NCBI GenBank assembly: GCA_029204225.1
Contig: CM055094.1
Span: 21,626,346-21,690,345, forward strand
Direction: 5' to 3'
Length of the DNA stretch: 64,000 nt
Source of the DNA: Diphasiastrum complanatum
Lineage: Eukaryota; Streptophyta; Lycopodiopsida; Lycopodiales; Lycopodiaceae
Below, in pieces: positions 38,042 through 61,856 of the stretch (position 1 is the stretch's first letter; each line of letters opens with the position of its first letter). Below the pieces are notes generated by a model. The model did not search any database and was not told the DNA's origin. It saw only the letters and a program-made list of their open reading frames with translations. The position numbers and the translations under genes were made by a program.

Positions 38042-38500
38042 ATGGCTCGGACGAAGCAAACTGCTAGGCTTACCCATTTTGTTCAATCGTCCCGTCCACA
38101 GACATCTGAACCCATACGTCTGCAAAGACGCGGAAGACCTCGCCGTCCATGGTTGAGGGGCATTAGGGCCTTGTAGAGGTACACCAAACTTGTGATCCTG
38201 AAAGCAGCCTTGTACCGGGCTGTGAGGGAGGTTACACAAGATATGACCACACATCTGCCCTATGCAGTGAGGTGGAATATTGCTACATTGGAGGCCCTCC
38301 ATATTGCATACGGGGACTTCCAGACAAAATTGTTTGAGGATTCGATGCTGTGTTCCATTCATGGCAAGAGGGTGACACTGATGCCCAAGGACATGCTTCT
38401 TGTCATGAGGTTTCAAGACACCTATGACAGCGGTATGCCACATGGCAAATCATGCAGGCTTGAGGGTTGCCATGTGGCAAGCCATGTAGGCCTACCATAA
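38042..38500 (+). pseudogene. CENH3-like histone H3 gene, copy 1 (stop at codon 45)
   Basis: A 152-residue histone H3 relative, presumed to act in nucleosomes. The tail starts MARTKQTARL, then diverges fully from the canonical ARKSTGG tail and is only ~37 residues long. The fold is clear: RRPWLR and RYTKL in the alpha-N region, KAALYRAVREVTQD in alpha 1, FEDSMLCSIHGKRVTLMPKD in alpha 2/loop 2/alpha 3. Between TQD and LFED there are four more residues than in canonical H3, with Arg-Trp at the start of alpha 2. Both features, with SMLC and VTLM, are typical of plant CENH3. Codon 45 is TAG (38174-38176; Gln in copy 2). The last ~20 residues after TYDSG are read from the adjoining GCCATGTGGC repeat. 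Single exon. A divergent non-centromeric H3 cannot be excluded. Confidence 0.75.
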
Positions 38501-39240
38501 CCTTGTATGTCAAGCTAACTGAGCCCTGTGCCACGTAGGCTTGAGTGGACCTAGAGATCTATATATATATATATAGGTGGGCTCAAAAGTTGCCACTTGG
38601 CAAACCACACAGGCCTACCATAGGCTTGCGTGGCAGGCCACATAGGCATGGCATGTTTCTGATGCTTCCTACGTAAGCATGTCGTAGGCTACCACATAGG
38701 CTTGCCATAGGCTTGTGTGGCAAGCAAACCAGGCTCTGCCATGTAGGCTTGAGTGGAGCTAGAGAGAGAGAGCTGGGGCTCCCAAGTTGCCATGTGGCAA
38801 GCCATGTAGGCATGTCATGAGATAAACCATAGGCTTGCGTGACAGGCCACATAGGCATGGCATATTTCTGATGCTTCCCATATAAGCATGTCGCAGGATA
38901 CCACATAGGCTTGCCATTGGCTTGTGTGGCATTCCAACCAAGCTCTTCCATGTAGGCTTGAGTGGAGCTAGAGAGAGAGAGCTGGGGCTCCTAAGTTGCC
39001 ATGTGGCAAGCCATGTAGGCATGTCATGAGATAAACCACACAGGCTGGGGACTTGCCATGTGGCAAGCCATGTAGGCCTATCATAGGCTTGCGTGGTAGG
39101 TCATATAGGCATGACATAGACTTGATGCTAGTATGTTCATGCTGGTATGTTGCAGTCTGCCATATAGGCTTGACATAGGCTTGTGTGGCAAGCCAACTAA
39201 GCTATACCACATGGGTTTGCCATGTAGGCTTGAGTGGAAT
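38430..39240 (+). repeat. GCCATGTGGC palindromic repeats with a ~219-bp tandem unit
   Basis: The motif CTGGGGCTCC..AAGTTGCCATGTGGCAAG recurs at about 38771 and 38990 (period 219), and a related unit begins near 38580 after a (TA)n run. Short GA runs separate units. The repeat starts inside the H3-like coding frame, supplying its C terminus. Confidence 0.85.
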
Positions 39241-41704
39241 GAGACAGAGAGAGAGAGAGAGAGAGAGAGAGTCTGAGTGAGGAGTCACACATAAATTACT
39301 TCCCTGTGGTATGGCCTAGCATCAACGTTGAAAAAAATATTTGATGGAGATAAGAAGGGTCCCAAGCAAATTTCAAATGAGAATCTTCACGTGTGGAATC
39401 AAGATCTACAAGAAAATCAACATTCTACACATAGAAAACCAAGATAGAGAAAATCACATGAGATGGACATAAGAGATGAATTCTCCACAAAGAAAGAAAC
39501 TTTGATGATTATTTCTCCACTTAGGTATAGATATTTATAGCTTCCAAAATGTCATTTGGCCACTTGCCCCAAACTTGACCTAATTTGGAAACTTCTAGAT
39601 ACTTTATCAAAAACCTAGAAAATCTAGTCTAGATGCAATGTACCAAAATTAGCCAATTAGAATGGGTCCAAACTCGACCTCATCCACTTATCTACTTGCC
39701 AGAGGTAGTTAAACCACTATTTAGGCCCTTATTAACAAATATGAAACTAACTCGAAGTTGAGATTCATTTTGGCCTCCAAAATTGCCAAATAAAAAAGCA
39801 AACTAGTTGACAATTTTTCACACCATGTCCTCTAGACATCTCCATTGATGAATACAATTTATAAGTTTTTGAAAGCAATTCCGAATGCAATCAGGGTCAT
39901 GTTTTAGCTCAGTGATCTCTATTTCACATTACAAAAGTTTCTAAAATACATCGTTCTAGGATTCGAGAATGGATTTTGGAACGAATTATATTTCATTGAA
40001 GTTTGAACGAGCTTGGAAATTTGAAGATTGAATGAAGCTGTAATCTAGGATTTTCAAAACTCAAAGTTGTTCATGCAAATTAAGTCATTTTTAATAATAT
40101 ATTAAAATGTTGTAATCTAGGGTTTCCAAAAACAAATTGAAAATTTGTTAAAAAAAATGCTTATTCCTTGTTACACGACTAAATAACATATAGTTAAAAA
40201 GCATATAATGAATCTATGCTATGTTCCAAACATATGCAAGTTACATTGCATTCATTCACACTTCACAAATCATTGGAATTTGAATTTGAATGAAATCATT
40301 GAAATGAGTAGATAAATGTTTAAATGAAGCGATAAATATTATATTCTTCCCATTTAATTCAATTATATTTATATATTATTGGTGCATTAATAGGATAAAA
40401 ACTTGTTATTATTATTTTCTTTGTTTCTATTGATTCAAGCAAGCACAGCTCGTCTAGATGATGACCACAATGCCTCTAAGGAGAAATAGTTTTTCATTTT
40501 TTTTAACTTTGATTTTTCTTCAAATTCAAATTTAATGATCTTCCCATGTGTGGTGAGTTGGTGTCTGCACTTGAGTTGGGCTTGTACACTCAAGTTTGAT
40601 TCTTTGCAATCCCCCTAAATTAATATAACCAGTAACATTATTCTCAAAGCATGTACTATGAGCTAAAAACAACACTTGGAGAGTAAAGAGTTAGGAATAT
40701 GTCAAACACTTTTACACCTAGTATTTGGCAAGATCGGATTCTTTGCGATAACCCCCCCCCCCCCCAATTCTTAATATAACTTCTCAAAGCATCTAGTATG
40801 AGCTACAAACAACACTTGGTAAGTCTTAAGACTTGGAGAATAAAGAGTTATGCATTTGTCAAATACTTTTACACCTAGCATTTGGCAAGTTAGACGCAAT
40901 GGTAGTAATTATAAGAGGTGATTGTGAAGCCATCTAGAGGTGATTTGTTGTTTAGTTGCCTAGCTACATATCAAGCTACGCCAAGTTACCAAACAATTTA
41001 CTATTATTTTGAGTGACAACCATCAAGCTATCATGATTTGAAAGCTTCTCTCTTGAAACTATAGCAAAAAGCTCTTATTCAAAGGAACAATCAAGGGTCG
41101 AGTACTTACCATACGAGATGAAGACCAACAAGTAGGGCAAGGAAAGAAGATGTACGGTTTACTTTGCTATGTGCTTGGAGGTATGTTGAGCATGCTTGGA
41201 ATATGAAGAACATGTGTTTTCCAAAAATATTAGTAGTCTCACAAAAAGGCTTGGAGTAACATTAGAATTTGGAAGTGGTGCACCTACTTTGGATGGATGA
41301 TCACTAACAAACAATTTCTGTCTAGTCCTTTTGCCATGATATGTTTCCTCTTGTCGATATGATATTTTCATTGTGTGTCTAAATATTTTTTGAACAGAAT
41401 ATGTGTAACCTAATTATTGTTGATTTTGATTTAATGAGCATTCAATGTTCATTTAATACATTAAATCAAATATCAACGATGAGAACATATATATATACAC
41501 AACGAGAAGAAGGTATATCTAGATCATAGATTATGAACGAAAGTGGACATTTCAAAAGAGATAGATTAGCAGTTGAGTGCCATATACATTGGCCCTAGAT
41601 GACTATAATGGTCAATCTTAAAAGCTCCAATCAACAAATGTTGATGTTTTCAATGTACTCAATTCAAAAAATTGCACCTAAAGGATTTTCTTCATAACAT
41701 TTGT
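39241..41704. repeat. Block A, second copy with its upstream part
   Basis: Starts with a GA run (39246-39271), then about 500 bases also present at 62085-62590, then the sequence matching 1-2025. It lacks about 60 bases present near 1290 and has a shorter poly-C. No gene. Confidence 0.8.
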
Positions 41705-61069: not shown

Positions 61070-61148
61070 GTCCATTCTCGGGGATTGTATAGGGTTTCAC
61101 GTAATTTGCGGTCATGTTAGATTGCTTCCATACGACCTGCATTCGTGA

Positions 61149-61397
61149 TATCGCCATCATGCGACCGACCTCGTCCCTAGGCCTATTCCTTACACCCTCT
61201 CACGTCGTAGCGATATCAGCCTGACTTTTCCAGTATCGCCATCATGCAAGCCCCTGCCTCTCCCTACCTGTCTCTGCCACTCTCTCGCGTTGTAGCAATA
61301 TCACCCTTAGAGTTCTCAGTGTCGCCATTATGCGAGATAATTTAGCTCTCTCTTCTGCTGTATCTTTGTCCTCACATGGTATAGATATCCGACCTCA
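61149..61397 (+). repeat. Three ~85-bp repeats in the H3-like 5' leader, copy 2
   Basis: TATCGCC at 61149 and 61234, TGTCGCC at 61320: the same 85/86-bp spacing as copy 1, so the triplication predates the spread of the element. Confidence 0.75.
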
Positions 61398-61856
61398 ATG
61401 GCTCGGATGAAGCAAACTGCTAGGCTTACCCATTTTGTTCAACCGTCCCGTCCCTAGACATCTGAACCCATGCATCTGCAAAGATGCGGAAGACCTCGCC
61501 GTCCATGGTTGAGGGACATCACGGCCTTGCAGAGGTACGCCAAACTTGTGATCCTGAAAGCAGCCTTGTACCGGGCTGTGAGGGAGGTTACACAAGATAT
61601 GACCACGCATTTGCCCTATGCAGTGAGGTGGAATATTGCTGCATTGGAGGCCCTCCATGTTGCATACGAGGACTTCCAGACAAAATTGTTTGAGGATTCG
61701 ATGTCGTGTTCCATTCATGGCAAGAGGGTGACACTGATGCCCAAGGACATGCTTCTTGTCATGAGGTTTCAGAACACCTATGACAACGGTATGCCACATG
61801 GCAAATCATGCAGGCTTCAGGGTTGCCATGTGGCAAGCCATGTAGGCCTACCATAA
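61398..61856 (+). pseudogene. CENH3-like histone H3 gene, copy 2 (stop at codon 20)
   Basis: Collinear with copy 1 over all 152 codons without an indel. Tail MARMKQTARL; fold pieces RRPWLRDITALQRYAKLVIL, YRAVREVTQDM, FEDSMSCSIHGKRVTLMPKD. Loop 1 is again four residues longer than in canonical H3, with Arg-Trp. Codon 20 is TAG (61455-61457; Gln in copy 1), while codon 45 is Gln. From 61470 the frame is open for 128 codons. Several differences from copy 1 are C-to-T or G-to-A at CpG (Thr4 to Met, Arg26 to His, Arg30 to Cys), as expected for methylated repeats. Coding DNA is visibly richer in G+C than its surroundings. Confidence 0.75.

What the first reader, a model, noticed from the sequence alone, without database searches (positions are those of the whole stretch)
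38042..61856. CENH3-like histone H3 gene carried by a repeated element
Two collinear 152-codon genes (38042-38500 and 61398-61856) read as histone H3. Loop 1 is four residues longer than in canonical H3, Arg-Trp opens alpha 2, and SMLC/VTLM occur, all typical of plant centromeric H3. The tail begins MARTKQTAR (or MARMKQTAR) but is otherwise unlike canonical H3. Both lie in identical repeat context. A mobile element carrying a CENH3-like gene would be striking, since CENH3 defines centromeres. The CENH3 assignment is from recalled family features, not an alignment.
Basis: partly seen in the sequence, partly recalled or inferred. Interest (0 to 1): 0.92.

Follow-up and report, generated by a model that had tools for sequence, protein, structure and literature searches.

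The report
Dead histone H3 copies in repeats
Two broken copies of a very divergent histone H3-like gene sit inside a repeated, apparently silenced stretch of what looks like a plant genome; they resemble genes picked up and copied by mobile DNA, and whether the source was the centromere-specific H3 cannot be settled from these two copies.

Summary
The copies differ at 23 of 459 sites (codon positions 11/7/5; dN 0.046, dS 0.055). Transitions fall in CG/CHG sites far above expectation (15 of 20 against 27%), as expected of methylated, silenced plant DNA; both stops are CHG changes.

The repeat context is real: a third unit on the minus strand shares the TATA-bearing 5' module and the 3' repeats but lacks H3. 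No transposon ends or transposase were identified.

CENH3 is not established. Loop 1 is four residues longer and Trp opens alpha 2, as claimed, but human H3.3 scores highest (copy 1: 78 bits against at best 66 for a CENH3), the tree is unresolved, and human H3.Y, not a CENH3, passes the same residue test.

TE-carried H3 is already published in fungi (PMC3538342, PMC6710886). Host and copy number are unknown: the genome search did not complete (15 requests).

The parts
38042..38500 (+). H3-like pseudogene, copy 1; TAG at codon 45 (38174-38176)
61398..61856 (+). H3-like pseudogene, copy 2; TAG at codon 20 (61455-61457)
37597..37733 (+). 5' module of copy 1 (truncated), TATATAAG at 37707-37714; homology to the H3-less unit ends at 37733
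60378..61089 (+). 5' module of copy 2, TATATAAG at 61063-61070; 94.5% identical to 32088-31377
37734..38041 (+). 5' leader of copy 1 with an 85-bp repeat (37793-37951) and three ATGs upstream of the H3 ATG (five in copy 2)
38432..39253 (+). 3' repeat region of copy 1 (209-bp tandem unit at 38617-39038); its start encodes about the last 20 residues of the chimeric frame
39053..41129 (+). downstream region shared with 61823-64000 (91.9% counting gaps) and, from 39777, with window 1-2021
61823..64000 (+). downstream region of copy 2, cut by the window end
30878..32088 (-). third unit: same 5' module (32088-31377) and 3' repeats (31035-30878) but no H3; 341 bp of other sequence between
52343..54348 (+). 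relative of the third unit's neighbourhood, read as internally deleted, joined at 53358/53360

Best explanation
A divergent, intronless histone H3-like coding sequence was captured, probably as a cDNA, between the TATA-bearing 5' module and the 3' repeat array of a repeated plant DNA unit, and was multiplied with that unit. The reading frame runs from the captured H3 into the repeat, so it is a chimera. These two copies were then silenced by CG/CHG methylation and have decayed about neutrally; each gained its own CAG-to-TAG stop. Under the standard code they make no full-length histone today. Shown: H3 homology, repeat context, stops, near-neutral divergence, excess of CG/CHG transitions. Inferred: capture as cDNA, transposition rather than segmental duplication, plant host, methylation as the cause of the excess, and an open ancestor.
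For: Histone match. In-frame stops at different codons, each CAG in the other copy. dN 0.046 and dS 0.055 over 23 of 459 differences; the frame diverged 5.0%, the 445 bp upstream 7.0%, about 2 kb downstream 2.9% by substitutions. CG+CHG transitions: 15 of 20 in the frame, 34 of 47 in the 974-bp block that includes it, 14 of 33 downstream, against 27%, 31% and 9% expected. An H3-less unit shares both flanks; its 5' homology ends 19 bases after the TATA box and its 3' homology resumes where the H3 homology ends. Of 14 columns invariant in the 12 references and kept in at least one copy, six differ between the copies. The H3 alignment runs through the frame without an intron.
Against: No TIR, LTR, target-site duplication or transposase was tied to the unit; the many blocks with shared breakpoints also fit segmental rearrangement. 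The H3-less unit could be a derivative rather than the precursor. Plant H3.1 genes are naturally intronless (PMC4357034, passages read), so lack of introns does not prove cDNA capture. Transitions were not polarised. Host unidentified.
Confidence: 0.72

Rival explanations
1. The captured gene was the host CENH3, so these are CENH3 pseudogenes spread by a repeat.
For: Loop 1 +4 and Trp at the alpha 2 start; the two non-CENH3 controls lack both. 10 residues in each copy match plant CENH3 but not canonical H3, against 4.4 expected. Canonical H3s split from the copies plus CENH3s at 94/94, not starred. With BLOSUM45, S. pombe Cnp1 is the best match of copy 2.
Against: Human H3.3 is the best match of both copies with BLOSUM62 (78.2 and 73.9 bits against at best 66.2 for a CENH3), though part of that lead comes from the N-terminal tip. 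The tip MARTKQTAR is canonical, whereas the three plant CENH3s used begin MARTKH (recalled sequences). Human H3.Y passes the same residue test (6 of 14, p 0.0006); T. brucei H3 fails it with the plant set (3 of 29, p 0.34) but passes with the wider set (10 of 29, p 0.0005). Copies held with plant CENH3: p 0.274; with canonical H3: p 0.246; neither rejected.
Confidence: 0.3
2. The source was an H3-like variant or a canonical H3 that diverged under weak constraint, before or after capture, and the CENH3 traits are convergence.
For: Canonical H3 is the best BLOSUM62 match and the first nine residues of copy 1 are canonical; 53 of 107 compared residues in copy 2 match neither group; seven of 21 residues invariant in the 12 references are lost in both copies.
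Against: Trp and a longer loop 1 together are unusual outside CENH3 (recalled).
Confidence: 0.6
3. The two copies are only one segmental duplication of a chromosomal H3-like pseudogene, with no mobile element involved.
For: 974 bp at 94.1% and about 2.1 kb at 91.9% are collinear, and the window is a mosaic of duplicated blocks in both orientations. No element termini identified.
Against: Left flanks differ; the 5' module recurs without H3 in inverted orientation.
Confidence: 0.3
4. The copies are still translated because TAG encodes Gln in this organism.
For: Both stops are TAG where the other copy has CAG. With TAG alone read as Gln, frames of 120 or more codons still exceed shuffles (90 against 12-23).
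Against: The standard code already gives 36 such frames against 3-6 in shuffles; with TAA and TAG both read as Gln the excess vanishes (231 against 253-280). CAG to TAG is a CHG transition, the largest class in the frame (9 of 20).
Confidence: 0.02

Closest known systems
Histone H3-like (H3L) hAT transduplication in Pyrenophora tritici-repentis (PMC3538342; passages read)
   Same: An H3-like coding sequence multiplied inside a repeated element.
   Different: There, a hAT transposase and terminal inverted repeats are described and full-length, near-identical H3L copies exist; here neither was identified and both copies are broken.
Histone H3 captured by a hAT transposon in Pseudocercospora fijiensis and relatives (PMC6710886; abstract, part 1 of Results and part 1 of Discussion read)
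   Same: Apparent retrocopy of H3 in a repeat, mutated by cytosine-directed decay.
   Different: 784 H3-like copies with CpA-biased RIP in a fungus; here two copies in the window and a CG/CHG bias.
Plant CENH3
   Same: Longer loop 1, Trp at the start of alpha 2 in two of the three plant CENH3s used (maize has Tyr).
   Different: Canonical tip, shorter tail, altered C-terminus, broken frame, unresolved tree.
Plant H3-like variants (PMC4357034; passages read)
   Same: Degenerate tail and deviation from H3.1/H3.3.
   Different: Those are host genes; these are repeat-borne pseudogenes. No direct alignment to them was made.

Membership tests
CENH3 | loop 1 longer than canonical H3 | tested here: met
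   +4 residues in both copies; +1 to +2 in three plant CENH3s
CENH3 | Trp in place of canonical Phe at the start of alpha 2 (recalled hallmark; maize CENH3 as recalled has Tyr) | tested here: met
   RW in both copies
CENH3 | divergent, extended N-terminal tail (PMC4357034, passage) | tested here: not met
   Divergent, but shorter than canonical (20 against 31 residues between the tip and the RxRP motif), and the first nine residues of copy 1 are canonical
CENH3 | groups with CENH3 in a tree | tested here: inconclusive
   AU p 0.274 with plant CENH3, 0.246 with canonical; 11 references recalled from memory
CENH3 | closest similarity to CENH3 | tested here: not met
   BLOSUM62: human H3.3 78.2 and 73.9 bits, best CENH3 66.2 for both copies; BLOSUM45: H3.3 first for copy 1, Cnp1 first for copy 2
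CENH3 | intact reading frame | tested here: not met
CENH3 | located at centromeres | not testable with these tools
   needs protein localisation
Histone H3 superfamily | core histone domain above curated cut-off | tested here: met
   PF00125 54.0 and 62.2 bits against 26.4; CENP-T_C and CENP-S also hit, below their cut-offs
TE-transduplicated gene | host-type gene inside a repeated unit that also occurs without it | tested here: met
TE-transduplicated gene | element termini, target-site duplication, mobility protein | tested here: inconclusive
   None tied to the unit; 18 non-H3 frames scanned with Pfam (8, 10, one pair overlapping) showed only copia pieces in two; ends were not searched exhaustively
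TE-transduplicated gene | copies dispersed in the genome | not tested
   The genome search did not complete (15 identical requests)

The most novel reading that the evidence does not exclude
A live family of plant mobile elements carries an intact, fast-evolving CENH3-like histone under its own promoter, possibly to alter chromatin at its target sites; the two window copies are its silenced dead members.
Probability: 0.08. Interest if true: 0.85.

Novelty: new member of a known kind. Interest (0 to 1): 0.3.

Why it matters
Repeat-borne H3 copies are known in fungi. A case in what looks like a plant, with a histone carrying two CENH3-type features, would be worth following mainly if intact copies exist. 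As found, it mostly warns that H3 or CENH3 hits in repeats need a check for stops before being called genes.

Tried and rejected
The genome search for histones in the window's own genome was asked 15 times in the same form and never answered, so host, host CENH3 and copy number are open. Pattern-based searches of viral contigs with the H3 frame, an RT-like frame, the tandem-repeat ORF, a 147-aa ORF and an H3 alignment confirmed no relatives; plasmids and phages gave no match to the copy 2 piece at E 1e-5. Rfam (gathering threshold) and tRNA scans of the window were empty. TAG as Gln was considered and thought unlikely.

The residue-sharing test at first favoured CENH3, but human H3.Y passed it with both CENH3 sets and T. 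brucei H3 with the wider set, though not with the plant set, so I do not rely on it. A neutral simulation from a canonical H3 core (98 codons, 2000 runs) to 43% identity gave no stop in 5% of runs, mean 2.8 stops, and a base shuffle of copy 1 left 152 codons open in 0.04% of 20000 draws; past coding constraint is thus likely but not proven. Conservation supports this modestly: columns invariant in 12 references hold the canonical residue in at least one copy in 14 of 21 cases against 29 of 76 elsewhere, one-sided p 0.019; scored on copy 1 alone (copy 2 at its stop) the contrast was 12 of 21 against 29 of 76, p 0.14.

Literature searches on H3 or CENH3 capture gave as direct precedents only the two fungal cases; listings were read by title and abstract start, and (15 of 24 papers; 10 of 59) were capped. 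In the plant gene-capture review PMC13317346 a term search found CENH3 only in its references and no 'histone'. Searches on CENH3 features were also capped (10 of 818, 8 of 42). A search for Penelope-like elements in plants found no paper.

Full report
Observation. The frames at 38042-38500 and 61398-61856 are 153 codons with the terminal stop and align without gaps. Each has one internal TAG: codon 45 in copy 1, codon 20 in copy 2. Each stop is CAG in the other copy, so the common ancestor was probably open at both places (inference). The histone match is strong: PF00125 at 54.0 and 62.2 bits against a cut-off of 26.4 for the stop-free pieces, and H3.3 chains at E 4.5e-17 and 9.8e-16. tblastn of ten recalled references and both copies against the window found no other credible H3 piece; the next hits have E 0.57.

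Decay. The copies differ at 23 of 459 sites, spread over codon positions 11, 7 and 5, with dN 0.046 and dS 0.055; the 445 bp upstream differ by 7.0% and about 2 kb downstream by 2.9% of substitutable sites. No gap separates the copies in the 974-bp block 37597-38570, where 57 sites differ. Transitions lie in CG or CHG contexts in 15 of 20 cases in the frame (expected 27%, p 9e-6), 34 of 47 in the 974-bp block that includes it (31%, p 9e-9) and 14 of 33 downstream (9%, p 6e-7). Direction was not polarised. That is the pattern expected where CG and CHG cytosines are methylated, as in silenced plant repeats (established knowledge; methylation itself was not measured). Among 14 columns invariant in the 12 references and kept in at least one copy, six differ between copies, against one of 29 kept variable columns; this small, alignment-dependent count speaks against purifying selection since the copies split. 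One of the six is the codon-45 stop.

Repeat anatomy. Copies 1 and 2 share 37597-38570 = 60953-61926 (94.1%) and 39053-41129 = 61823-64000 (91.9% counting gaps); the stretch with the 209-bp tandem repeat of copy 1 (38617-39038) is missing in copy 2. A third unit on the minus strand shares the 5' module (60378-61089 = 32088-31377, 94.5%) and 3' repeats (31035-30878) but has 341 bp of other sequence where H3 lies. The shared 5' sequence contains TATATAAG and stops 19 bases past it, near where transcription would be expected to start (inference). At the other side the H3 homology ends in the repeat, which supplies about the last 20 residues. Between the TATA box and the H3 ATG lie three further ATGs in copy 1 and five in copy 2, so even an intact frame might be poorly translated (inference). 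Copy 1's left side is joined at 37582 to a repeat that also occurs in inverted orientation at 41722-43272; window 1-3601 matches 39777-43272. 52343-54348 is a related block that I read as carrying an internal deletion. No terminal repeats, target-site duplication or transposase was tied to the unit. Of 18 non-H3 frames scanned with Pfam (8, 10, one pair overlapping), one gave copia domains above cut-off, one gave copia domains below cut-off, one gave weak unrelated hits below cut-off and the rest gave nothing.

CENH3 or not. In favour: loop 1 is four residues longer than canonical (+1 to +2 in the three plant CENH3 sequences; +6 in S. pombe Cnp1 by the alignment) and Trp opens alpha 2. Against: BLASTP with BLOSUM62 ranks human H3.3 first for both copies (78.2 and 73.9 bits) over CENH3s (at best 66.2), partly because the alignment includes the N-terminal tip; with BLOSUM45, H3.3 is first for copy 1 and Cnp1 first for copy 2. 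Core identity is 39-41% to plant and human H3, 34-35% to yeast H3 and 35-40% to CENH3s. The tip is canonical. In a tree of 13 rows and 105 columns the copies sit on a branch of 1.26 changes per column; canonical H3s separate from the rest at 94/94 (not starred), but holding the copies with plant CENH3 (p 0.274) or with canonical H3 (p 0.246) is not rejected. Each copy shares 10 plant-CENH3-only residues against 4.4 expected (p 0.006-0.007), but human H3.Y, not a CENH3, shares 6 of 14 (p 0.0006); T. brucei H3 shares 3 of 29 with the plant set (p 0.34) and 10 of 29 with the wider set (p 0.0005); the true CENH3 control, yeast Cse4, shares 5 of 26 (p 0.035) and 10 of 26 (p 0.002). I therefore call it a divergent H3-like sequence with two CENH3-type features.

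Known precedents. H3-like genes carried and multiplied by hAT elements are published in two fungal groups: Pyrenophora tritici-repentis (PMC3538342, passages) and Pseudocercospora and relatives (PMC6710886, abstract and parts of Results and Discussion). The general idea is thus known. My searches listed no plant case, in an open-access library only and with two capped listings.

Limits. The host is inferred to be a plant from copia domains, the CG/CHG bias and one CCCTAAACCCTAAA match.

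Noticed in passing
29953-30495 (-) and 53488-53964 (+): Two related frames that resemble a Penelope-type reverse transcriptase by recalled motifs (GIPM in both, YIDD in the first); no Pfam hit for either, no PDB hit for the first.
   Followed up: partly
2043-5114, 36228-37582, 41722-43272: Tandem units of about 670 bp encoding a repeated unknown protein (stop-to-stop frame of 384 codons at 2029-3180, minus), in both orientations.
   Followed up: partly
1-2021: Matches 39777-41700, the region downstream of H3 copy 1, so a further H3 copy may lie just outside the window's left end.
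   Followed up: no
31036-31376 (-): Sequence that replaces H3 in the third unit; begins with a short ATG frame right after the shared TATA module.
   Followed up: no
6907-7009, 10200-10315, 21961-22064, 25089-25204, 47396-47490, 57032-57129: Related 36-bp tandem repeats recurring in several blocks, in both orientations.
   Followed up: no
54346-54359: Single plant-type telomere motif CCCTAAACCCTAAA at the edge of the reverse-transcriptase-like block.
   Followed up: no
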